The notes: a model not told the origin generated them from the sequence alone. DNA of 64,000 bases from Prescottella subtropica (GCF_005434945.1 NZ_SKCH01000009.1:1-64000); one strand, 5' to 3'; shown: positions 4,437 to 28,109, counted from the first letter of the stretch. Made by a program: numbers and translations.

Positions 4437-6368
4437 TCAGCCGACGCCCGCATCCTTGGAGACACCGTCCGCGGGCACCGTGCGGTCCAGTCCGACGACC
4501 CACCCGGTCACCTGCCGGGTGATGTCCTGCGCCGTGAGCCCCAGCTCGCGGAGCACCTGGTCCCGCGACGCGTGCGCCAGGAACTGTTGCGGCACACCGA
4601 GATCCCGGCACGGGGTGTCGACACCGGCTGCGCGCAGCGCCGCCGACACACTCGACCCGACACCGCCGTGCAGGCCGCTGTCCTCGACGGTGACGATCAT
4701 CCGGAAGCTCGATGCCAGGTCGACGAGCGACCCGGGCACCGGCAGCACCCACCGCGGATCCACGACGGCCGCGGTGATGCCGTGCTGGCCGAGCCGCTGG
4801 GCCGTCTCCAGCGCCACCGACGCGAACGAGCCGACCGCGACGAACAGCACGTCACCGGCATCGCCGTCGGGCATCGCCAGCATGTCGACACCATCGTCGA
4901 GCCGCCGCACCGCCGGAATATCGTCGCCGACAGCACCCTTCGGGAACCGGACGACGGTGGGGCCGTCCTCGACGGCGAGGGCCTCGCCGAGTTCCTCACG
5001 CAGGGTCGCCGCGTCCCGCGGGGCCGCCACCCGGATGCCAGGGACGATGCCCAGCAGCGACAGATCCCACATGCCGTTGTGGCTGGCACCGTCGGATCCG
5101 GTGATGCCGGACCGGTCCAGCACCATCGTCACCGGCTGCTTCAGCAGTGCGACGTCCATGAGCAGTTGGTCGAACGCCCGGTTGAGGAACGTCGAATAGA
5201 CCGCGACCACCGGGTGCATGCCGCCGAGCGCCAGACCGGCCGCCGAGGTGACCGCGTGCTGCTCGGCGATACCGACGTCGAACATCCGTTCCGGGAAACG
5301 CTCCCCGAACGCGGCCAGACCGGTGGGGCCGGCCATCGCGGCGGTGATCGCGACGATGTCGTCGCGCTGCTCGGCGCGGGCGATCAGCTCCGCCGAGAAC
5401 ACCGACGTCCAGTCCGGCGCGGACGTGGTGGTGCGGGACTTGCCGGTGAGCGGGTCGATCACGCCGGTCGCGTGCATCTGGTCGGCGACGTGGTTCTCGG
5501 CGGGCGCGTAACCCATGCCCTTGCGGGTCACCGCGTGCACGATCACCGGGCCGCCGAACGCCTTGGCGCGGCGCAGCGCCGACTCCATCGCGACCTCGTC
5601 GTGCCCGTCGACCGGGCCGAGATATTTCAGGCCCAGGTCGGTGAACAGCACCTGCGGGCTGACGGTGTCCTTGAGGCCCGCCTTCATCCCGTGCAGCAGC
5701 TGGTAGGCGGCCCGGCCCACCCACGGCATCTTCTTGACCATGCGCCGGCCGCTGTCGAGCATCCGCTCGTAGCCGGGCTGCAGCCGCAGCGACGCCAGAT
5801 GGTCGGCGAACCCGCCGATCGTCGGCGCGTAGGAGCGGCCGTTGTCGTTGACGACGACGACGACCGAACGGTCCTTCCCGGCCGCGATGTTGTTGAGGGC
5901 CTCCCAGCACATGCCGCCGGTCAGGGCCCCGTCCCCGACGACGGCCACGACGTGCCGGCCACGCTGCCCGGACAACTCGAACGCCTTCGCCAGCCCGTCC
6001 GCGTACGACAGGGCCGCCGACGCGTGCGACGACTCCACCCAGTCGTGTTCGCTCTCGGCGCGATCCGGGTAGCCGGACAGGCCGCCCTGCTTGCGCAGCG
6101 AATCGAACCGGTCCTTGCGGCCGGTGACGATCTTGTGCACGTACGCCTGGTGACCGGTGTCGAAGACGATCGGATCGGTCGGCGAATCGAACACCCGGTG
6201 CAGGGCAAGGGTCAGTTCGACGACACCCAGGTTGGGGCCGAGATGGCCGCCGGTCGCGGACACCTTCTGCACGAGGAACTCGCGGATCTCCGCGGCGAGC
6301 TCCTTCATCTCCACGGCATCGAGCCGACGCAGGTCGTCAGGCGTCTGAATGCGGGCAAGGACACCCAA
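4437..6368 (-). CDS. dxs: 1-deoxy-D-xylulose-5-phosphate synthase
   Basis: Thiamine-diphosphate enzyme that condenses pyruvate and glyceraldehyde 3-phosphate, the first step of the MEP isoprenoid pathway. Visible motifs are [20 protein letters not shown], the ThDP/Mg site [16 protein letters not shown], and [12 protein letters not shown] in the pyrimidine domain. I chose the TTG at 6368 (giving [13 protein letters not shown], matching family N-termini), because GGAGGGAG lies eight bases before it. A start at 6407 would add 13 residues without a ribosome site. About 643 residues, normal length. The pentapeptide-repeat gene follows two bases later. Confidence 0.95.
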
Positions 6369-6465
6369 CGAGATCGCTCCCTCCACCAGGTTCACAGGCT
6401 GTCGCACGACAGCCCTCCAAGTCTACGGACGCGACAGAACACGCACCCGGACTGTCCGCTCATCC

Positions 6466-6471
6466 TACTGT
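6466..6471 (+). promoter_or_regulatory. -10 element, leaderless glsA mRNA
   Basis: TACTGT six bases before the ATG at 6478, with no ribosome site visible. Confidence 0.5.
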
Positions 6472-6477
6472 TGCCCC

Positions 6478-8301
6478 ATGAGCAACGTCGTCGACGACTT
6501 CATCACGCGGGTGTTCGACGCGGTCCGCACCGACACCGGCGGCGAGCTCGCCGACTACATCCCGGAGTTGGCCGCGGTGGCCCCGGACCGGTTCGGGATC
6601 GTCGTGGCCACCGCCGACGGGCACGTGTACGAGGTCGGGGACACCGAGACCGCGTTCACCATCCAGTCGATCTCCAAGCCGTTCACGTACGCGCTGGCCC
6701 TCGCCGACCGGGGGGTGGACGCCGTCGGCGAGAAGGTCGACGTGGAACCGTCCGGGGAGCCGTTCAACGAGATCAGCCTCGACCCGGGCACCGAACGCCC
6801 CCGCAACCCGATGATCAACGCGGGCGCGATCACGTCGGCGTCGCTCGTCGCCGGTACGACGCCGACACAGCGGTTCGAACGCATCCGGTCGCTGTATTCG
6901 CGGTGCGCGGGCCGGCCGCTGTCCCTCGACCAGAACGTGTACGCGTCCGAGGCCCGCACCGGCTACCGCAACCGGGCGATCGGCTACATGCTGCGCTCGT
7001 TCGGGATCGTCACCGGCAACCCGGACGACGCCGTCGACCTGTACTTCCGGCAGTGTTCGATCGAGGTCACGTGCCGCGATCTGGGCCTGATGGCGGCCAC
7101 CCTCGCCAACAACGGCGTCCACCCGCACACCCGGGAACGGGTCCTCTCCCCCGCGATCGTCGAACGCGTCCTGAGCGTGATGACGACGTGCGGCATGTAC
7201 GACGACGCCGGCGAATGGGTCACCGACGTCGGCCTGCCTGCCAAGAGCGGGGTCGGCGGCGGTGTGCTCGCGGTACTGCCCGGCCAGTTGGGGATCGCGG
7301 TCTTCTCGCCGCGCCTGGACCCGCACGGCAACAGTGTCCGCGGGGTGCGGGCGTGCCGGGAACTGTCCCAGGACCTGGGCCTGCACTTCCTGCGGGTCAC
7401 CCGCGCGTCCCGGTCGTCGATCCGGGCCCGGCACACCGTCGCGTCGGTACGCTCCCGGATCCGCCGCACCGACACCGAGGAGGCCGCACTCGACGAGTTC
7501 GGGGACCGGGGCCGCCTGTACGAACTGCACGGCGACCTGCTGTTCACCGGCGCCGAGACGGCCGTGCGGGCGATCGACGCCGACCGCACCGACGCCGAGG
7601 CCGTCGTCGTCGACGTCAGCCGCGTCGACGACGTGAGTGCGGTGGCGCGCACCATGATCGAGGCGCTGCGCGCCGACCTCGCCGAATCCGGGTGCCCCAC
7701 CGCCCTGGTCGACCCGGCCGGGGTGTTCGGGCACACCACGTCGAGCCTGAATCCGCACGCCCCGCACGGCCGGGTGTTCGTCGACCTGGACGCCGCCACC
7801 GAATGGTGCGAGGACATCGTCCTGGACCGGCACTGCCCCACCGGCCGGCAGCCGGCGTCGATCGACCTCGAGGCCCACCCGCTGCTCACGGACCTGTCGC
7901 CCGACCAGTTCGAACGGTTCACCGGCGAACTCGAACGCCGCACCGTCGCCCGCGGCGAGACGGTCGTGCGCCGCGGCGACCGTGACACCGGGATCTTCCT
8001 GGTGCTGTCCGGCCGGGTCAGCACGATCGTGACCTCCGCGGACGGGGCCGCGCACCGGATCACGACCCTGTCGGCGGGCACCACGTTCGGGGAGATGCCG
8101 GCCCTGCTCGACTCGGCGTTCCTCAACGACGTGCGCGCCGACTCCACCGTCACCCTCGCGGTGCTGCCGCCGGACGGGTTCGCCCGGCTGACGACGACAG
8201 CACCGGAGATCAAGGCGGCCCTGCTCGAGCGGCTCGCAACCGCCGCCTACAGCCAACTCGACACGATGCTGCGCACGTTCGAGCAGCGCGGACGAATCTG
8301 A
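6478..8301 (+). CDS. glsA: glutaminase fused to STAS and cNMP-binding domains
   Basis: A 607-residue protein. Residues 1-310 form a serine-dependent glutaminase that hydrolyses glutamine to glutamate and ammonia. Nucleophile Ser64 and Lys67 lie in QSISKPF, and [10 protein letters not shown] follows. A STAS domain spans roughly 350-450 ([25 protein letters not shown]). A cyclic-nucleotide-binding domain spans roughly 465-590 ([37 protein letters not shown]). Stand-alone glutaminases are about 310 residues, so the extra domains suggest activity gated by a nucleotide or partner protein. Ligand specificity is unknown. The start at 6478 fits a leaderless TACTGT. Confidence 0.92.
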
Positions 8302-12567: not shown

Positions 12568-13833
12568 TCAGCGCGTGAGCAGCGCCAGCGACTCCACGTG
12601 ATGCGTCGACGGGAACGCGTCGAACGCCCGCACCCGATCCAGCCGATAGCCGTTCTCCAGGTACAGCGCCACGTCCCGCGCGAACGACGCCGGATCGCAG
12701 CCGATGTGCACGATCCGCTCCGGGGCTGCGGCGGCGACGGCCGCCACGACCTCCCTACCGGCCCCGGCCCGCGGCGGATCGAGGACGACGACCTCGGGGG
12801 CGGGCAACTCGTGCAGCGCCCGCTCCACCCGCGCCGCATGCAGATGCACCTGCGGCAGATCCGTCAGCGATGCCGTCCCGTCCGCGACGGCCTGCCGGGA
12901 GAACTCCACCGAGTCGACGCGGCCGGACTCACCGACCTGCCCGGCGAGCGTCGCCGCGAACACCCCCACCCCGCCGTACAGATCCCACACCCGGGCCCCG
13001 GCCGACGCCTGCGCCCACTCCCCTACCACCGTCGAATACATGGAGGCCGCACCGCGGTGTGCCTGCCAGAAACCGGTCGCCGACAGCGTCCACTCCCGAT
13101 CCCCGACACGTTCGAGTGCCCGACCCGACCCGACGACGACCCGTTCGGCGCGGCTGCCCGACGATGCCGCCCGCCGCGCGGTCGCCCCGCGCCGGCCCGG
13201 GCTGCGACGACCGGTGCGGGACACCTTCGGCGGCGCCACCTCCACGACGTGCCGCTCCCCGGCCGCGTCGAGCACGATCTGCACCTCGACGCCCGGCTGC
13301 CACGACCGCTCCGACAGACCGGCGTAGGCGGCCGGGTCGATCTGCGGGCACGCCAGGAACGTCTCGATGTCGAGGCTGCGGTACCGGTGGAATCCGGGCC
13401 GGCCGGCGGCGTCGACGGCCAGCCGCACCCGCGACCGCCAGCCCGTCCCGTTCCCGGTGCCGGGCAGTTCCTCGACGGCGACATCCAGGTCCACGCCCGC
13501 GATCCGCCGCAACTGCTCGGCGACGACGGACGACTTCATCGCCCGCTGCGCCGCCGGCGTCGCGTGCGAGTAGTCGCAGCAGCCGGCCCCGTCCGGCCCC
13601 GAGATCGGACACAGCGGGTCGACACGGCCGTCCGACGGCACCAGGATCTCCACGGCGTCGGCGCGGCAGAACGAGCCGCCACGGTCCTCGGTGACGTGCG
13701 CGATCACCCGTTCGCCGGGCAGCCCGTGCCGCACGAACAGCACCCGCCCGTCGTGCCGGGCGACGCAGAACCCGCCGTGCCCGGGGTTACCCAGTTCCAC
13801 CTCGAGTCGGAGTCCAGCCCAGTTCTCGCTCAC
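12568..13833 (-). CDS. TrmA/RumA-family RNA m5U methyltransferase (Rv2689c-like)
   Basis: A 421-residue class I SAM-dependent RNA uridine-5 methyltransferase. The TRAM-like N-terminus (GFCVARHDGRVLFVRHGLPGE) precedes CPISGPDGAGCCDY and a later CPQID, consistent with the 4Fe-4S cysteines of RumA. SAM binding is DLYGGVGVFAATLA; VLDPPRAG and the catalytic Cys in HIGCDPASFARD follow. I chose the GTG at 13833, seven bases after the permease stop; an ATG at 13857 would overlap that gene by 17 bases. The target RNA position is unknown. It is probably co-transcribed with the K+ permease. Confidence 0.88.
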   Translation of the reverse strand: MSENWAGLRLEVELGNPGHGGFCVARHDGRVLFVRHGLPGERVIAHVTEDRGGSFCRADAVEILVPSDGRVDPLCPISGPDGAGCCDYSHATPAAQRAMKSSVVAEQLRRIAGVDLDVAVEELPGTGNGTGWRSRVRLAVDAAGRPGFHRYRSLDIETFLACPQIDPAAYAGLSERSWQPGVEVQIVLDAAGERHVVEVAPPKVSRTGRRSPGRRGATARRAASSGSRAERVVVGSGRALERVGDREWTLSATGFWQAHRGAASMYSTVVGEWAQASAGARVWDLYGGVGVFAATLAGQVGESGRVDSVEFSRQAVADGTASLTDLPQVHLHAARVERALHELPAPEVVVLDPPRAGAGREVVAAVAAAAPERIVHIGCDPASFARDVALYLENGYRLDRVRAFDAFPSTHHVESLALLTR

Positions 13834-13840
13834 CTGACGG

Positions 13841-15847
13841 TCACTTACCTTCCACATCGAAACCACGTCGGATCGCGCCGGGCGCGCTGTCGAAGTTCGC
13901 CTTCCGGGCCCGCTCCCGGGCCTTCTCCGACGAACTGAGCTGCCACGGCACACTCGTGACCATCACCCCCGGCTGGAACAGCAGCCGGCTCTTCAGGCGC
14001 AGCGCACTCTGGTTGTGCAGCAACTGTTCCCACCAGTGACCGACCACGTACTCGGGGATGAACACCGTCACCACGTCGCGCGGCGAGTCGCGGCGCACCC
14101 GGCGCACGTACTCGAGCACCGGCTTGGTGACCTCCCGGTACGGCGACTCGATCACCTTGAGCGGCACCGTGATGTCGCTCTTCTCCCACTCCCGGACCAG
14201 CGCCCGGGTGTCGGGTTCGTCGACGTTGACGGTGACCGCCTCGAGTGTGTCCGGGCGGGTGGCCCGCGCATAGGCCAGTGCCCGCATCGTCGGCATGTGC
14301 ATCTTGGACACCAGCACGATCGAATGGGTACGGCTGGGCAGCACCCCGTCCCACTCCTGCTCGTCGAGTTCGGCGGCGACCCCGTCGTAGTGCCGACGGA
14401 TCGACTTCATCAGCACGAAGATCGCGATCATCGCGACGATCGCGATCCAGGCGCCGGCCGCGAACTTCGTGAGCAGCACGATCACCAGGACGGCACCGGT
14501 CATCACCAGACCGACCGAGTTGATGACCCGGGACCGCTGCATCCGGCTGCGTGCCGCCGGATCCGTCTCGGCCTTCAGGTGCCGGGTCCAGTGCCGGATC
14601 ATGCCGGTCTGGCTGAGCACGAACGAGACGAACACCCCGACGATGTAGAGCTGGATGAGTTTGGTGACCTCGGCCCCGAACACCACGACGAACGCGATCG
14701 CCGCACCCGACAGGAACAGGATGCCGTTGCTGAACGCCAGCCGGTCGCCGCGGGTGTGCAGCTGCCGCGGCAGGTACCGGTCCTGCGCGAGTACCGACCC
14801 GAGCACCGGGAACCCGTTGAACGCGGTGTTCGCGGCGAGCACCAGGATCAGGGCGGTCACGATCGCGATGAAGAAGAAGCCGACCGAGAACCCGTCGAAC
14901 ACCGCGCCCGCGAGCTGCGCGATGAGCGTCTTCTGCTGGTAGTCGCCGGGCGCGCCGATCAGCTGCGTGGCCGGGTCGTGCGCGTACACGATGCCGATCT
15001 TCTGGGCGAGGACGATGATGCCCATCAGCAGGGTGATCGCGAACGTGCCCAGCAGCAGCAGCGTCGTCGCGGCGTTGCGGGACTTGGGCTTCCGGAACGC
15101 CGGGACACCGTTGCTGATCGCCTCGACACCGGTCAGGGCCGCACACCCCGACGAGAACGCGCGGGCGATGAGGAACGCGAACGCGATGCCGTACAGGTGC
15201 GTGTCCTCGGCCTGCAGATCGAATCCGGAGGACTCGGCGTGCACATCGTCCCCGAACACGTAGATCCGCACGAACCCCCACGTCAGCATGAGCAGCATGC
15301 CGACGATGAACGCATACGTGGGAATCGCGAACATGGTGCCGGACTCGCGGATGCCACGCAGGTTCATCGCCGTGAGCAACGCGATCGCGGCGACCGCGAA
15401 CAGCACCTTGTGCTCGGCCACGAACGGGACCGCCGACCCGATGTTCGACGCGGCCGACGAGATCGACACCGCGACCGTGAGCACATAGTCGACCATCAGC
15501 GCGCTGCCCACCGTGAGCCCGGCGTTCGGACCGAGATTGACCGTCGCCACCTCGTAGTCGCCGCCGCCGGACGGGTACGCCTGCACGTTCTGCCGGTAGC
15601 TGGCGACGACGACGGCCATCACGATCGCCACCGACAGGCCGATCCACGGCGTGTAGGCGTACGCGGAGATACCGGCGACGGACAGCACCAGGAAGATTTC
15701 TTCCGGTGCGTAGGCGACGGACGACATGGCGTCCGACGCGAAGACTGGGAGTGCGATCCGCTTGGGCAGCAGGGTGTGCCCGAGCTTGTCGCTCCGGAAC
15801 GGTCGCCCCAGAATCAGCCGCTTGGCAGCGGTGGAAACCTTCGACAC
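13841..15847 (-). CDS. KimA-like APC potassium permease (Rv2690c-like)
   Basis: A 668-residue APC-superfamily protein with about 12 TM helices and a 200-residue cytoplasmic C-terminal domain. From memory, the N-terminal half closely resembles Bacillus KimA, a K+:H+ symporter: DAMSSVAYAPEEI, SYRQNVQAYPSGGGDYEV, NLGPNAGL, and VDYVLTVAVSISSAASNIGSA. It is divergent from ceoB and ceoC, which encode RCK gating proteins; this supports a potassium role, as an inference. The GTG at 15847 is chosen over the TTG at 15853 because TACGCT lies six bases upstream. It could instead be an amino-acid permease. Confidence 0.85.
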   Translation of the reverse strand: MSKVSTAAKRLILGRPFRSDKLGHTLLPKRIALPVFASDAMSSVAYAPEEIFLVLSVAGISAYAYTPWIGLSVAIVMAVVVASYRQNVQAYPSGGGDYEVATVNLGPNAGLTVGSALMVDYVLTVAVSISSAASNIGSAVPFVAEHKVLFAVAAIALLTAMNLRGIRESGTMFAIPTYAFIVGMLLMLTWGFVRIYVFGDDVHAESSGFDLQAEDTHLYGIAFAFLIARAFSSGCAALTGVEAISNGVPAFRKPKSRNAATTLLLLGTFAITLLMGIIVLAQKIGIVYAHDPATQLIGAPGDYQQKTLIAQLAGAVFDGFSVGFFFIAIVTALILVLAANTAFNGFPVLGSVLAQDRYLPRQLHTRGDRLAFSNGILFLSGAAIAFVVVFGAEVTKLIQLYIVGVFVSFVLSQTGMIRHWTRHLKAETDPAARSRMQRSRVINSVGLVMTGAVLVIVLLTKFAAGAWIAIVAMIAIFVLMKSIRRHYDGVAAELDEQEWDGVLPSRTHSIVLVSKMHMPTMRALAYARATRPDTLEAVTVNVDEPDTRALVREWEKSDITVPLKVIESPYREVTKPVLEYVRRVRRDSPRDVVTVFIPEYVVGHWWEQLLHNQSALRLKSRLLFQPGVMVTSVPWQLSSSEKARERARKANFDSAPGAIRRGFDVEGK

Positions 15848-15853
15848 CGCCAA

Positions 15854-15859
15854 AGCGTA
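15854..15859 (-). promoter_or_regulatory. -10 element, leaderless permease mRNA
   Basis: TACGCT on the minus strand, six bases before the GTG at 15847; this spacing decides the start. Confidence 0.5.
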
Positions 15860-16061
15860 AGCCGTCCGTACGGCCGCGTGGGATCAGGGCGGTCCGGTGG
15901 GCGATTTCTCCGCTTCCCCCGGTCCCGGAATACGGTCCGGAATGTGGCGCGCGCGACGACCGCACCGACTGCTGCCGTGTACCCGCCCACGGGCGCTGTA
16001 CCGTTCGATCCGATACCGACGGCACCCCGCCGGTGACCGCAGCGAGAAACGGAGTGGACTG

Positions 16062-16727
16062 GTGTACGTAGTCGTCATGGGATGCGGCCGGGTCGGCTCG
16101 TCCCTCGCTACCGCACTGAGCCGGATCGGCCACGAGGTCGCCGTCATCGACCGCGATCAGAGTGCGTTCCTCCGCCTGGGCGCGGACTTCTCCGGCCACA
16201 CCGTGGTCGGCATGGGCTTCGACCGGGATGTCCTGGTGCGCGCCGGAATCGAACGCGCCGAGGCGTTCGCGGCCGTGTCGTCCGGCGACAACTCGAACAT
16301 CATCTCCGCGCGCGTCGCCCGCGAGACGTTCGGCGTCGACCGCGTCGTCGCCCGCATCTACGACGCCAAACGCGCCGCCGTCTACGAACGGCTCGGCATC
16401 CCCACGATCGCGACCGTGCCGTGGACCACCGACCGGTTCATGCTGGCGCTGCAGCAGGACGACCAGATGGCCAAGTGGCGGGACCCGTCGGGCACCGTCG
16501 TCGTCACCGAACTGGCGTTGCACGAGGACTGGGTGGGCCGCAAGGTCACCGACCTCGAGGAGGCCACGTCGTCACGGGTGTCGTTCCTCATCCGCTTCGG
16601 CACCGGGATCCTCCCCGACCGCAAGACCGTCATCCAGTCCGACGACCAGGTGTACGTCGCGGCCGTCGCCGGCACCGTCGCCGAGGCCGTCGCCCTGGCC
16701 GGCAACCCGCCGCCGTCCGACGACTGA
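16062..16727 (+). CDS. ceoB: TrkA-type RCK potassium uptake protein
   Basis: A 221-residue cytosolic RCK protein. The Rossmann motif GCGRVGSSLA is at residues 7-16 with the acidic ribose contact VIDRD, and a TrkA-C domain occupies about 130-221. Such proteins bind NAD(H) or ATP and gate K+ transporters. The GTG at 16062 has GGAG seven bases upstream. It is paired with ceoC 55 bases downstream, as in M. tuberculosis Rv2691-Rv2692. No TrkH or TrkG channel is present, so the divergent KimA-like permease is a candidate partner. Confidence 0.93.
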   Translation: MYVVVMGCGRVGSSLATALSRIGHEVAVIDRDQSAFLRLGADFSGHTVVGMGFDRDVLVRAGIERAEAFAAVSSGDNSNIISARVARETFGVDRVVARIYDAKRAAVYERLGIPTIATVPWTTDRFMLALQQDDQMAKWRDPSGTVVVTELALHEDWVGRKVTDLEEATSSRVSFLIRFGTGILPDRKTVIQSDDQVYVAAVAGTVAEAVALAGNPPPSDD

Positions 16728-16782
16728 CCCGGTCCCCGGTCATGACCTCCTTCTCGATCGACTACCCGATTGGAAACCTCCG

Positions 16783-17469
16783 ATGAGAGTGGCCATCGCA
16801 GGAGCCGGCGCCGTAGGCCGCTCCATCGCCCGTGAACTCGTCCGCAGCAACCACCACGTGATGCTGCTCGAACGCAAACTCGACCATCTCGAACCGGACG
16901 CGATCCCGCAGGCCGAATGGGTGCTCGGGGACGCGTGCGAGCTGAGCCTGCTCGAGACCACCCAGCTCGAGACGTACGACGTGGTGATCGCCGCGACCGG
17001 CGAAGACAAGGCCAACCTCGTGCTGAGCCTGCTCGCGAAGACCGAGTTCGGGGTGGGCCGGGTGGTTGCCCGCGTCAACGACCCCCGCAACGAATGGCTG
17101 TTCGACGAGTCGTGGGGCGTCGACGTCGCGGTCTCCACCCCGCGGATGCTCGCATCGCTGGTCGAGGAGGCCGTCACCGTCGGCGACCTGGTCCGGCTGA
17201 TGACGCTGCGGCAGGGGCAGGCCAACCTCGTCGAGATCACGCTACCCGACGACACCGCCCTCGCCGGCAAGCCGGTCCGCAAGATCCGGCTGCCGCGCGA
17301 CGCCGCCCTCGTGACGATCCTGCGCGGCGGACGCGTCATCGTCCCGCAGGCCGACGATCCGCTCGAGGGCGGCGACGAACTGCTGTTCGTGGCGTCCGTC
17401 GAGGTCGAGGACGACCTACGCGCGGCGGTCGGTCTCCGGACCCTCGGTGACCGGCCCCTCGACGACTGA
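16783..17469 (+). CDS. ceoC: TrkA-type RCK potassium uptake protein
   Basis: A 228-residue second RCK subunit. GAGAVGRSIARELV at residues 7-20 is the nucleotide-binding turn and LLERK the ribose-contacting strand. The TrkA-C domain carries LAGKPVRKIRLPRDAALVTI and the repeat ends in GDELLFVAS. It probably forms a hetero-oligomer with CeoB. Its 3' end overlaps the convergent DUF3159 gene by 54 bases, so the two transcripts must be complementary at their ends. Confidence 0.93.
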   Translation: MRVAIAGAGAVGRSIARELVRSNHHVMLLERKLDHLEPDAIPQAEWVLGDACELSLLETTQLETYDVVIAATGEDKANLVLSLLAKTEFGVGRVVARVNDPRNEWLFDESWGVDVAVSTPRMLASLVEEAVTVGDLVRLMTLRQGQANLVEITLPDDTALAGKPVRKIRLPRDAALVTILRGGRVIVPQADDPLEGGDELLFVASVEVEDDLRAAVGLRTLGDRPLDD

Positions 17470-18117
17470 GTTCTCGGCGAGTTCGGCAGGGGCCGGGGCC
17501 GGTTCGACGATCCGGTCGGCGCGCCGCACCGCCCACACCGTCACCAGCAGTGCGGCACCGGCGAGCGGCCAGCCCATCGCGATCCGGGCGACCGCCAGCC
17601 ACCCCGTCCGGTCGTCGTTGTAGAGCGCGTTCTGCACGACGAAGCGGGCACCGAAGACGAGCGCCCACGCCAGCGTCGCGAGGTCGTAGGCGCGCACCGC
17701 GACCGGGTGGGCGCGCCACGCGTTGCGGTGGCCGTTGAGGTAACCCCAGGCCACCCCGACGAGCGGCCACCGGACGAGGATCGAGAGCACGAACGCCGCG
17801 CCGTACACGAGGCTCGAGTAGATACCGAACAGGAAGTAGCCCTTGGCATCCCCGGTCCGGTAGGCGATGAACGCGCACACCCCGACACCGACGAAACCGG
17901 AGATCGCCGGCTGGACGGGGCTGCGGCGGACGATCCGCCACACCAGGATGGCGGCGGCGGCCCCGAGCGCGATCCACAGCGCCGGCATCAGGCCCCAGAT
18001 GCTGTTCGCGGGCACGAACACGAGGATCGGCAGCGTCGAATAGACGAGCCCGCTCAGGCCGCCCATCTGTTCCAGGATCGTCTGCTGCTTGGTTTCGCTC
18101 ACACGAGGTTCACTCAC
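17416..18117 (-). CDS. DUF3159 membrane protein (Rv2693c-like)
   Basis: A 233-residue protein with about five or six hydrophobic helices. It has the conserved QQTILEQMGGLSGLVYSTLP opening of the family, YRTGDAKGYFLFGIYSSL and a GYLNGHRNAWR loop. Function unknown. I start at the GTG at 18117, which has CACCCT six bases before it, a near-consensus leaderless -10; GTG codons at 18135 and 18102 are alternatives. It converges on and overlaps ceoC. Confidence 0.85.
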   Translation of the reverse strand: MSEPRVSETKQQTILEQMGGLSGLVYSTLPILVFVPANSIWGLMPALWIALGAAAAILVWRIVRRSPVQPAISGFVGVGVCAFIAYRTGDAKGYFLFGIYSSLVYGAAFVLSILVRWPLVGVAWGYLNGHRNAWRAHPVAVRAYDLATLAWALVFGARFVVQNALYNDDRTGWLAVARIAMGWPLAGAALLVTVWAVRRADRIVEPAPAPAELAENSVVEGPVTEGPETDRRA

Positions 18118-18168
18118 ACGACGAGGGTGCCACACCCGGGAGCCTCAGCCCCGGTCCGGACGAAACGG

Positions 18169-18546
18169 TCAGGATTCGCCGCGGAGTTCGTAGTACGGGT
18201 TGAAGATCACCTTCTGCCCGTCGCGGTCACCGATCCGGCCCCGCACCATGAGCGTCTTGCCGGGCTCGATCCCCGGGATACGACGCCGTCCGATCCACAC
18301 CAGGGTCACCGGATCGGTACCGTCGAAGAATTCGGCCTCGACACTCGCGTTCGCCGACTTGGGGCACGCCTCGACGCTCCGCAACCGGCCGAGCATCGTG
18401 ACCTCCTCACCGCGGGCGCAGTCACAGGCCCGGGTCGCACCCGACGCCTGTGCGGTCTCCACCATCTCCTCTGCATCCAACTGCTCGAGGTCTTCGGTGA
18501 GTTTGCGGGTCAGCCTGCGGAAATAGCCTGTCGCGGCGGGTGCCAT
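18169..18546 (-). CDS. OB-fold nucleic acid binding protein (Rv2694c-like)
   Basis: A 125-residue protein with an N-terminal helical part (YFRRLTRKLTEDLEQLDAEEM), an ACDCARGEEV turn and a C-terminal OB-fold beta-barrel (EVTMLGRLRSV, PVTLVWIGRRRIPGIEPG, LMVRGRIGDRDGQKVIFNPYYEL). OB folds of this type resemble tRNA-anticodon or RecG-wedge domains. Role unknown. The ATG at 18546 has GGAG nine bases upstream. DUF3159 lies 51 bases downstream on the same strand. Confidence 0.85.
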   Translation of the reverse strand: MAPAATGYFRRLTRKLTEDLEQLDAEEMVETAQASGATRACDCARGEEVTMLGRLRSVEACPKSANASVEAEFFDGTDPVTLVWIGRRRIPGIEPGKTLMVRGRIGDRDGQKVIFNPYYELRGES

Positions 18547-18726
18547 AACGTGCTCCTGGACGTGGCGGCGGCAGATCGTGCGCCGCGACGATGATGCTCG
18601 ACGGGGCCCGTACGGCCCGGGTTGGGGGTTATCGGGTGGTCTTCTGCTGGCCACTGTATCCCCAAAGCGAGCGGACAACCACAGCCGTTCACGGGCACCC
18701 GGAAACGGCCGTGCATGATCGTCTCC

Positions 18727-26106: not shown

Positions 26107-27330
26107 TCAGCTCGTCAGGAAGGGGTCCTTCGGGGCCCCTTCCTCGTTTCTGTCGTCGTCGTCCCGGGGACGCTGCAGGAGCCGCACGAGCGGTTCGGCG
26201 AGTTTGGCGCCGACCGGCCCGACGACGGCCATGATCAGCACGTAGGCGGTTGCGAGGGCCGCGAGTTCGCCGTCGACGGCGCCCGCGGACACCGCGAGTC
26301 CGGCGATGACGATGGAGAATTCGCCGCGCGCGACGAGGGCGGCGCCGGCGCGGGCCCGGCCCATCGCACCGATGCCCTGCCGGCCCGCCGCCCACCATCC
26401 GGTCAACACCTTCGTCGCGGTGGTCACGACGGCCAGCCCGATCGCCGGGACCAGGACCGGCGGGATCGTCGACGGGTCGGTGCCCAGCCCGAACACGACG
26501 AAGAACATGGCCGCGAACAGGTCGCGCAGCGGCTCGAGCAGTCGGGTGGCGTCGCGGGCGGTGGATCCGGAGATCGCGATGCCCAGCAGGAATGCGCCCA
26601 CCGCTGCGGACACCTGCAGGGACGACGCGAACCCGGCGACGAGCAGCGCGGCCCCGAGCAGTTTGAGCAGGAACACCTCGCGGTCGGTGCTGTCGAGGTA
26701 CCGGGACACCACCGAGCCGTAGCGCAGCGCCACCACCAGGACGACGGTGATGACGAGGAACGAGATCCCGACGGCCTTCAGCCCGCCCAGGAAGCTCACC
26801 CCGGCCAGGACCGCGGTGAGGACCGGCAGGTAGAACGCCATCGCGAGGTCCTCGAACACGAGGATCGACAGCACGACGGGGGTTTCCCGGTTGCCGAGGC
26901 GGCCCAGGTCGCCGAGGACCTTCGCGACGATGCCCGACGACGAGATGTAGGTGACGCCGCCGAGGACGAGGGCACCGACCGGACCCCATCCGAGCATCAG
27001 CGCGAGGATCACGCCGGGCGCGGCGTTGAGCAGCAGGTCGACGACACCGGCGGTCCACGACCGTCTCAGCCCGGTGACGAGTTCCGCGGCGGTGTACTCG
27101 AGGCCGAGCAGCAGCAGGAGCAGGACGACGCCGATCTCGCTCGCGAGGCGGCTGAATTCGCCGATGTCGCCGAGCGAGAAGATCCCGCCCTGCCCGAAGC
27201 ACAGGCCGCCGATCAGGTACAGCGGGATCGGCGACATGCCGATGCGCCCGGCGAGCCGCCCGAGCACCCCGAGCGCGAAGAAGACGGCGCCGAGTTCGAC
27301 GAGCGCCAGTGCTGTTCCGGTCAACGCCAC
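26107..27330 (-). CDS. khtU: CPA2 cation:proton antiporter (KhtU-like)
   Basis: A 407-residue membrane protein with about 12 TM helices of the CPA2 monovalent cation/H+ antiporter family. It has PLYLIGGLCFGQGG, LLLLLLGLEYTAAEL, SSSGIVAKVLGDLGRL and ILVFEDLAMAFYLPVL, the acidic membrane motif of the family. It probably expels K+ in exchange for protons, regulated by the TrkA-C protein encoded 21 bases upstream. The last codons (GAPKDPFLTS) are encoded within the sigA terminator stem. GTG start. Symbol given by analogy with Bacillus KhtTU. Confidence 0.85.
   Translation of the reverse strand: MALTGTALALVELGAVFFALGVLGRLAGRIGMSPIPLYLIGGLCFGQGGIFSLGDIGEFSRLASEIGVVLLLLLLGLEYTAAELVTGLRRSWTAGVVDLLLNAAPGVILALMLGWGPVGALVLGGVTYISSSGIVAKVLGDLGRLGNRETPVVLSILVFEDLAMAFYLPVLTAVLAGVSFLGGLKAVGISFLVITVVLVVALRYGSVVSRYLDSTDREVFLLKLLGAALLVAGFASSLQVSAAVGAFLLGIAISGSTARDATRLLEPLRDLFAAMFFVVFGLGTDPSTIPPVLVPAIGLAVVTTATKVLTGWWAAGRQGIGAMGRARAGAALVARGEFSIVIAGLAVSAGAVDGELAALATAYVLIMAVVGPVGAKLAEPLVRLLQRPRDDDDRNEEGAPKDPFLTS
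26117..26144. terminator. sigA terminator with UUCG tetraloop
   Basis: 12-bp stem AGGAAGGGGTCC / GGGCCCCTTCCT (one G-T pair) closed by TTCG between C and G, a very stable tetraloop. GTTTC follows at 26146. It lies inside the 3' coding end of the convergent antiporter. Confidence 0.85.
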
Positions 27331-27351
27331 GAGTCCGCCCCCCTGCCGAAC

Positions 27352-27834
27352 TCAGCCGAGCGCGAGGATCTTGGCGGCCTGGTCGAGTCCCTCGGGCGTG
27401 CCGACCGCGACCAGGAGGTCCCCCTCGGTGAGCAGGAAGTCGGGAGTCGGGGACGGTGCGACCTGTCCGGCCCGCATCACCGCGACGACCGACACCCCGG
27501 TCCGGGTGCGCATCGCGGTGTCGCCGAGACTGCGTCCGTCCCACGGCGAGTTCTCGGTGATCGGCAGCTGCCGGGTGCTGATACCGGGCAGGTCCCGGTG
27601 CTCCTCCCGCAGTTGCGCGACGAGTTGCGGCGCCCCGAGCAGATTCGCCAGCACCGACGCCTCCTCGGTTTCGAGGGGAATCGACGCCATGCACGCGTCG
27701 GGGTCGTCGAGCCGGGACACGATCAGTTCGGTGCGGCCGTCACGGTGGGCGACCACCCCGATCCGGCGGCCCGTCGCGAGTGCGAAGTCCTTACGGACCC
27801 CGATGCCCGGCAGCGGCGTCACTTCCACGTTCAT
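27352..27834 (-). CDS. khtT: TrkA-C domain regulator of K+/H+ antiporter (KhtT-like)
   Basis: A 160-residue cytosolic protein. The N-terminal domain (MNVEVTPLPGIGVRKDFAL, the typical KhtT opening) is followed by an RCK_C domain (SPWDGRSLGDTAMRTRTGVSVVAVMR, FLLTEGDLLVAVGTPEGL). In Bacillus, KhtT gates KhtU and binds c-di-AMP; the same role is inferred here from the tandem arrangement. The ATG at 27834 has TACGGT seven bases upstream (leaderless). Confidence 0.88.
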   Translation of the reverse strand: MNVEVTPLPGIGVRKDFALATGRRIGVVAHRDGRTELIVSRLDDPDACMASIPLETEEASVLANLLGAPQLVAQLREEHRDLPGISTRQLPITENSPWDGRSLGDTAMRTRTGVSVVAVMRAGQVAPSPTPDFLLTEGDLLVAVGTPEGLDQAAKILALG

Positions 27835-27841
27835 GCGATCA

Positions 27842-27847
27842 ACCGTA
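27842..27847 (-). promoter_or_regulatory. -10 element of khtTU
   Basis: TACGGT on the minus strand, seven bases before the ATG at 27834. Confidence 0.5.
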
Positions 27848-28109
27848 GACCCACCCCGATATCGGCACATACGGGGCGAGTACACGGCGTTCCCGCTCTG
27901 CTGTCAGCGAACACCGCCGGCGGCCGTAGCCGCATCGTGCGAGATCAGCGGGGTGAATCGGGAAGATTGTCAGACAGGACACACCGGGGGTGGATCGGGA
28001 ACAACCTGATCGGCCCGAACGTCTGACAGAGTGGACCCACCGCGTCACCCCCGACGCGGCGGAAGACCCCAGGTGGCGGGTGCGAGCCCGCAGCCAGTTC
28101 GGAGGAGTC

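What the first reader, a model, noticed from the sequence alone, without database searches (positions are those of the whole stretch)
13841..17469. KimA-like permease paired with CeoB/CeoC instead of a TrkH channel
Two TrkA/RCK proteins are divergent from an APC permease whose N-terminal half resembles Bacillus KimA. No TrkH/TrkG/KtrB membrane subunit is present. The conserved pairing across Mycobacteriales suggests the RCK proteins gate the APC permease, an arrangement not usual for Trk systems. A KhtTU-like exporter lies 9 kb further on (26107-27834), and KimA and KhtT are both c-di-AMP-controlled in Bacillus.
Basis: partly seen in the sequence, partly recalled or inferred. Interest (0 to 1): 0.6.

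Follow-up and report, generated by a model that had tools for sequence, protein, structure and literature searches.

The report
Potassium importer KimA with TrkA-type regulators
In mycobacteria and their relatives the potassium 'Trk' system has two control proteins but no known membrane pore; the neighbouring permease is a full-length KimA-type K+/H+ importer and is most likely the missing transport subunit.

Summary
At 13841-15853(-) lies a 670-aa KimA homologue: 39% identity over the whole of Bacillus KimA, with every published K+- and H+-site residue and every side-chain c-di-AMP contact conserved. It diverges across 208 bp from CeoB and CeoC, which match the first and second halves of TrkA. 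The genome has no TrkH/KtrB and no Kup.

Among 148 Actinomycetota genomes, 51 carry KimA. In 38 of these (17 families) the CeoB-like gene lies within 4 kb, and 32 of the 38 have no TrkH/KtrB. Where TrkH/KtrB coexists it has its own RCK protein in the loci examined. KimA-linked RCK pairs form one supported clade; the KimAs beside them do not (AU p 3.5e-61), so the pair stays with a KimA although the KimA lineage changes. KimAs of other phyla mostly stand alone.

M. tuberculosis papers treat CeoBC as the transporter, name no membrane subunit, and report Rb+ uptake after deleting ceoBC and kdp. I infer an RCK-regulated K+/H+ symporter: transport identity about 0.95, functional partnership about 0.8, direct gating about 0.6. 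No binding was tested; Mycobacterium uberis keeps KimA with broken ceoB/ceoC. The nearby KhtTU-like pair looks incidental.

The parts
13841..15853 (-). KimA-type K+/H+ symporter (670 aa, TTG start): 12-TM LeuT-fold domain plus C-terminal cytosolic domain; orthologue of Rv2690c by synteny
15854..16061 (.). 208-bp divergent intergenic region shared by kimA and ceoB; no kimA/ydaO riboswitch and no sigma-70-like promoter match found
16062..16727 (+). CeoB: RCK_N + RCK_C protein (221 aa, GTG start), GCGRVG nucleotide-binding motif, resembles the first half of TrkA; Y108 of the reported cholesterol motif conserved
16783..17469 (+). CeoC: RCK_N + RCK_C protein (228 aa), GAGAVG motif, resembles the second half of TrkA
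12568..13953 (-). TRAM/RumA-type RNA methyltransferase (Rv2689c-like), context only; conserved neighbour in closer relatives
17416..18135 (-). DUF3159 membrane protein (Rv2693c-like), context only
26107..27330 (-). CPA2 cation/proton exchanger (KhtU-like), judged a separate system
27352..27885 (-). RCK_C protein (KhtT-like) of that exchanger; published c-di-AMP signature not matched

Best explanation
The permease is a KimA-type proton-coupled K+ importer. CeoB and CeoC together form the equivalent of one TrkA: a cytosolic nucleotide-binding RCK assembly of the kind that gates TrkH channels, here working on KimA. The membrane subunit carries K+ in with H+. The RCK pair reads nucleotide (NAD(H) or ATP/ADP) state, and perhaps lipid ligands, and sets how fast the symporter runs. 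c-di-AMP, if it acts, does so as in Bacillus by binding the symporter's own cytosolic domain. The mycobacterial 'Trk' system would then be a KimA-CeoB-CeoC system. Shown here: homology, residue conservation, co-occurrence, partner-specific RCK phylogeny. Inferred: K+ transport by this protein, physical contact, direction of regulation, ligands.
For: Full-length KimA match, 384.5 bits, E 1.1e-113. Identical residues at the K+/H+ sites D36, Y43, D117, T121, S125, T230, E233, Y377, and at the c-di-AMP sites Y118, N237, L325, R337, V457, L461, V506, H579, N580, Q581, S582; only P479 and A481 differ (sites from PMC6994465 and PMC10284832). No TrkH and no Kup in the genome, but KdpA and a diadenylate cyclase are present. 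Adjacency in 38 of 51 KimA genomes, 17 families, 32 without TrkH. In KimA+TrkH/KtrB genomes the TrkH/KtrB loci examined carry their own RCK (RCK tree). KimA-linked RCK pairs form one clade with SH-aLRT 99, 45 of 46 rows, while RCK-linked KimAs are not one clade, AU p 3.5e-61. Adjacency persists where flanking genes and orientation change, and an operon KimA-RCK-RCK with a different RCK lineage exists in a Chloroflexota MAG, L126. M. tuberculosis: ceoB and Rv2690c transposon mutants share enhanced rifampicin survival (PMC12216072); both are enriched for within-host mutations (PMC13308281); a ceoBC kdpFABC kdpDE mutant still takes up Rb+, more than wild type, by an unidentified transporter (PMC13163235), as expected if CeoBC are regulators.
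Against: No physical interaction was tested. KimA of B. subtilis works without RCK proteins, and KimAs of Bacillota (0 of 14), Acidobacteriota (0 of 10) and Bdellovibrionota (0 of 8) lack an RCK neighbour. In Mycobacterium uberis KimA is intact while ceoB carries stops and a frameshift and ceoC is degraded (draft genome), so the transporter does not strictly need them. KimA already has its own c-di-AMP-binding cytosolic domain beneath the membrane part, and it is not obvious where an RCK ring would dock. Divergent rather than operonic genes allow mere co-regulation.
Confidence: 0.7

Rival explanations
1. KimA is an autonomous, c-di-AMP-inhibited K+/H+ symporter. CeoB/CeoC only share its regulation of expression through the divergent promoter and act on some other K+ protein.
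For: B. subtilis KimA transports alone when expressed in E. coli (PMC6994465). All side-chain c-di-AMP contacts are kept. M. uberis keeps KimA without intact CeoBC.
Against: In the window's genome there is no TrkH/KtrB for them to gate; the other clear RCK_N domain there is a lone protein on C56. RCK phylogeny tracks partner type. Adjacency survives changes of KimA lineage, gene orientation and flanks. Co-directional cases and the Chloroflexota operon do not depend on a divergent promoter.
Confidence: 0.22
2. The permease transports amino acids or polyamines (its APC annotation), and the RCK genes are neighbours by chance.
For: Pfam places it in AA_permease_2.
Against: The only PDB sequence match at E 0.1 or better is KimA. 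K+-coordinating D36, Y43, T230, Y377 and proton-coupling E233 are identical and near-invariant across 132 homologues. Repeated pairing with K+ regulators.
Confidence: 0.03
3. A divergent, undetected TrkH-like or other channel elsewhere is the true partner of CeoBC.
For: The genome is a 67-contig draft; profile searches can miss very divergent channels.
Against: 100% estimated completeness; the same profile rings in 90 of 148 relatives at whole-phylum distance, yet in none of the window's family sampled here. Where TrkH/KtrB is present in KimA-RCK genomes it has its own RCK.
Confidence: 0.05

Closest known systems
Bacillus subtilis KimA (YdaO), KUP-family K+/H+ symporter, PDB 6S3K, 8B70, 8B71
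   Same: Whole-length homology, 39% identity; K+ site, proton-coupling Glu, c-di-AMP contacts
   Different: Bacillota KimAs sampled have no RCK neighbours and B. subtilis kimA is under a c-di-AMP riboswitch (literature); here the RCK pair is divergent and no riboswitch was found
TrkH-TrkA (PDB 4J9U, 6V4J)
   Same: CeoB matches TrkA residues 3-218, CeoC matches 234-438: a TrkA split into two genes
   Different: The membrane part is a LeuT-fold symporter, not a TrkH channel; TrkH is absent
TM1088A/TM1088B two-subunit TrkA ring of Thermotoga (PDB 3L4B, PMC4380455)
   Same: TrkA function split over two proteins; CeoB best match is TM1088A, CeoC also matches TM1088B
   Different: TM1088 was described as part of a putative Trk channel
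M. tuberculosis CeoBC 'Trk' system (Rv2691, Rv2692) with Rv2690c
   Same: Same gene order rumA-permease-ceoB-ceoC-DUF3159-OB in named Mycobacterium loci; Y108 of CeoB conserved
   Different: Literature describes CeoBC as the transporter and names no membrane subunit (PMC4553272)
KimA-like transporters of Streptomyces venezuelae (Vnz_27465, 39%; Vnz_15480, 42%; PMC10117811)
   Same: KimA homologues in a TrkH-less actinobacterium; an RCK_C protein with the next locus tag, Vnz_27460, is listed there and reported not to bind c-di-AMP
   Different: The paper draws no link between the permease and the RCK protein
KhtTU and Kef K+/H+ antiporters
   Same: Secondary transporters controlled by RCK/KTN domains (own knowledge; KhtTU in PMC10117811)
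   Different: CPA2 antiporters that export K+, unrelated in fold to a KUP-type importer

Membership tests
KimA / KUP-family K+/H+ symporter | Homology over transmembrane and cytosolic domains | tested here: met
   phmmer residues 10-638 vs KimA 5-604, E 1.1e-113; AlphaFold2 model, mean pLDDT 85.7, long helices then an alternating strand-helix C-terminal domain
KimA / KUP-family K+/H+ symporter | K+-site and proton-coupling residues | tested here: met
   D36, Y43, T121, S125, T230, E233, Y377 and D117 identical
KimA / KUP-family K+/H+ symporter | c-di-AMP-binding residues | tested here: met
   R337, V457, L461, V506, H579, N580, Q581, S582, Y118, N237, L325 identical; P479 to L and A481 to S
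KimA / KUP-family K+/H+ symporter | c-di-AMP (ydaO/kimA) riboswitch upstream | tested here: not met
   No Rfam hit in 13500-18500 beyond a chance microRNA match; a feature of Bacillus gene regulation, not of the protein family
KimA / KUP-family K+/H+ symporter | K+ uptake coupled to H+ | not testable with these tools
   Needs a transport assay
Trk system (TrkH/TrkG + TrkA) | TrkH/TrkG channel subunit | tested here: not met
   No PF02386 match in the genome
Trk system (TrkH/TrkG + TrkA) | Two RCK units as in TrkA | tested here: met
   CeoB and CeoC match the two halves of TrkA
RCK-regulated transporter | Physical gating of the membrane protein by the RCK assembly | not testable with these tools
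   Only genomic and phylogenetic association was tested
c-di-AMP-binding RCK_C proteins (KtrA, KhtT) | (I/L)(I/L)xxDxRxxxxxN(I/L)(I/L) signature | tested here: not met
   Absent from CeoB, CeoC and the KhtT-like protein

The most novel reading that the evidence does not exclude
A LeuT-fold proton symporter (KimA) is directly gated by a split-TrkA ring, which would be the first importer of this fold run by an RCK ring. TrkA-type pairs in Actinomycetota would then be interchangeable control modules that combine with KimA, TrkH, P2-type ATPases or tandem APC-Usp permeases.
Probability: 0.5. Interest if true: 0.82.

Novelty: new variant of a known kind. Interest (0 to 1): 0.62.

Why it matters
CeoBC is required for full host colonisation by M. 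tuberculosis in published work, yet two cytosolic proteins cannot move K+ across a membrane and no membrane subunit has been named. This names a candidate, predicts c-di-AMP control of mycobacterial K+ import through conserved pocket residues, offers a reading of why ceoBC kdp mutants still take up Rb+, and gives a single assay that decides the matter. It also extends RCK control to a LeuT-fold symporter.

Tried and rejected
Looked for a kimA riboswitch and sigma-70-like promoters in the divergent region: none. Considered KhtTU proximity as a functional cluster: rejected as incidental. Considered the weakly similar APC permeases next to RCK pairs in other families as KimA: rejected, they are a separate APC+Usp group. 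First ORF-based gene starts for CeoB/CeoC were wrong frames and were replaced. The concatenated RCK-pair tree mis-paired L178 because its gene order is unusual; the single-domain tree places it inside the KimA-linked clade. The AU result could reflect differential loss of tandem KimA copies rather than replacement, and the group was named after seeing a first tree; either way the RCK pair stays with a KimA. Label counts and the Fisher test are not corrected for shared ancestry.

Full report
What is there. The permease gene runs 15853 to 13841 on the minus strand (670 aa). Divergent from it, 208 bp away, are ceoB (16062-16727) and ceoC (16783-17469). On either side are a TRAM/RumA-type methyltransferase and DUF3159. 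The order methyltransferase, permease, ceoB, ceoC, DUF3159, OB-fold gene is the same in named Mycobacterium and Mycolicibacter loci and, from general knowledge, is that of Rv2689c to Rv2694c.

The permease is KimA. Mapped on the published structures (PMC6994465, PMC10284832), all K+- and H+-site residues are identical, as are all side-chain c-di-AMP contacts and the Tyr118/Asn237 transduction pair; P479 and A481 differ, and the P479 contact in KimA is through the backbone. Across 132 labelled homologues these positions are mostly invariant, the K+/H+ site nearly so. A second KimA in this genome (C34, 35% identical to the first) keeps the K+ site but has HDRT in place of the HNQS c-di-AMP stretch, and no RCK neighbour was detected.

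CeoB and CeoC are a split TrkA. CeoB aligns best with TM1088A and with the first half of TrkA, CeoC with the second half of TrkA and with TM1088B. Both keep a GxGxxG nucleotide motif. Neither has the RCK_C c-di-AMP signature. Tyr108, reported as essential for cholesterol binding by M. tuberculosis CeoB (PMC12136442), is present at the same position in the window's CeoB.

No classical partner. The genome has no TrkH/KtrB and no Kup; it has KdpA and one diadenylate cyclase. Its other clear TrkA_N domain is a single protein on another contig.

Co-occurrence. In 148 Actinomycetota genomes searched for the permease, TrkH and CeoB, 51 have KimA at 250 bits or more, 38 of them with a CeoB-like gene within 4 kb, in 17 families; 32 of the 38 have no TrkH/KtrB (Fisher p 5e-11, not corrected for ancestry). 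Six of the 38 have both (G008, G055, G109, G115, G126, G139). Their TrkH/KtrB loci were fetched, with that of G013, whose RCK-adjacent KimA copy is cut short: each holds its own RCK, a separate KtrA-like protein in all but G126, which has a TrkH-type pair. A motif scan of genomes of 84,980 species gave 117 KimA loci (80 printed, all saved). Among those with at least 800 bp upstream of KimA, an RCK neighbour is absent in Bacillota (0 of 14), Acidobacteriota (0 of 10) and Bdellovibrionota (0 of 8), present in two of 18 in Chloroflexota, and in 28 of 34 in Actinomycetota.

Phylogeny. Concatenated RCK pairs group by membrane partner: KimA-linked pairs form a clade (SH-aLRT 99, 45 of 46 rows), beside pairs linked to P2-type ATPases and apart from TrkH-linked pairs (single-domain tree). 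The KimAs next to them are not one clade (AU p 3.5e-61). So one RCK lineage has stayed beside KimA while the KimA lineage changed, by replacement or by differential loss of tandem copies, and while orientation (80 divergent and 6 co-directional rows, some of them overlapping views of one locus) and flanking genes changed. A Chloroflexota operon, KimA-RCK-RCK with a 23-bp gap (L126), uses an RCK pair from a different branch and so looks like an independent pairing. This is stronger than synteny alone, but it remains association.

Published physiology. M. tuberculosis papers describe Trk as two TrkA proteins and name no membrane subunit (PMC4553272; PMC6375644). Deleting ceoBC leaves growth intact in low K+ (PMC6375644), and a ceoBC kdpFABC kdpDE mutant takes up more Rb+ than wild type through an unidentified transporter (PMC13163235), as expected if CeoBC regulate rather than transport. 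ceoB and Rv2690c transposon mutants share enhanced rifampicin survival (PMC12216072), and both genes show excess within-host mutation (PMC13308281). Rv2690c insertions were also selected by pyrazinoic acid (PMC8805019). No paper in the searched library mentions KimA together with Rv2690c, and the one paper with both 'KimA' and 'CeoB' is unrelated. A 2023 review calls two Streptomyces permeases KimA-like, notes the absence of TrkH, and lists the RCK_C protein with the next locus tag as not binding c-di-AMP, without linking them (PMC10117811).

Mechanism and limits. Most likely this is a proton-coupled K+ importer whose rate is set by a CeoB/CeoC assembly reading nucleotide state, with c-di-AMP acting on the importer itself. 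The sign of RCK control is uncertain: Rb+ uptake rises without CeoBC and Kdp, while cholesterol binding to CeoB is reported to raise cell K+. Against an obligatory role, Mycobacterium uberis keeps an intact KimA while ceoB and ceoC are broken (draft assembly). RCK control of secondary transporters is known for Kef and KhtTU antiporters, so the principle is not new; its use on a KUP-type symporter would be.

Verdict. Observation confirmed; interpretation supported as association and partner identity, not yet as physical gating. New variant of a known kind.

Noticed in passing
L162 2297-8798, L165 8618-12783, L166 1818-5966, L167, L168, L169, L180: In several Actinomycetota families a CeoB/CeoC-like RCK pair lies directly downstream of a P2-type cation ATPase (Pfam-confirmed for L166). 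I know of no described RCK partnership with a P-type ATPase.
   Followed up: partly
L171, L172, L173, L181: RCK pairs next to two tandem APC permeases, in L171 both with a C-terminal Usp domain and only weakly related to KimA.
   Followed up: partly
L175, L176, L177, L179, L229-L231, L234, L235, L237, L239, L240: Many actinobacterial KimAs carry a second copy of the cytosolic (c-di-AMP-type) domain at the C-terminus, about 745-770 aa in all.
   Followed up: no
window ~18169-18620 (-); many KimA-RCK loci: An OB-fold gene (Rv2694c-like) is conserved beside ceoC in most KimA-RCK loci with enough flank, and was not found in the TrkH- or P-ATPase-linked RCK loci.
   Followed up: partly
L146 (Mycobacterium uberis) 4766-8000: KimA is a single intact reading frame while ceoB has stops and a frameshift and ceoC is degraded: a natural case of the transporter without its RCK pair.
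   Followed up: yes
G000:C34:32355-34208 (L002): Second KimA paralogue in the window's genome with the K+ site kept but the c-di-AMP stretch changed (HDRT for HNQS) and no RCK neighbour detected.
   Followed up: partly
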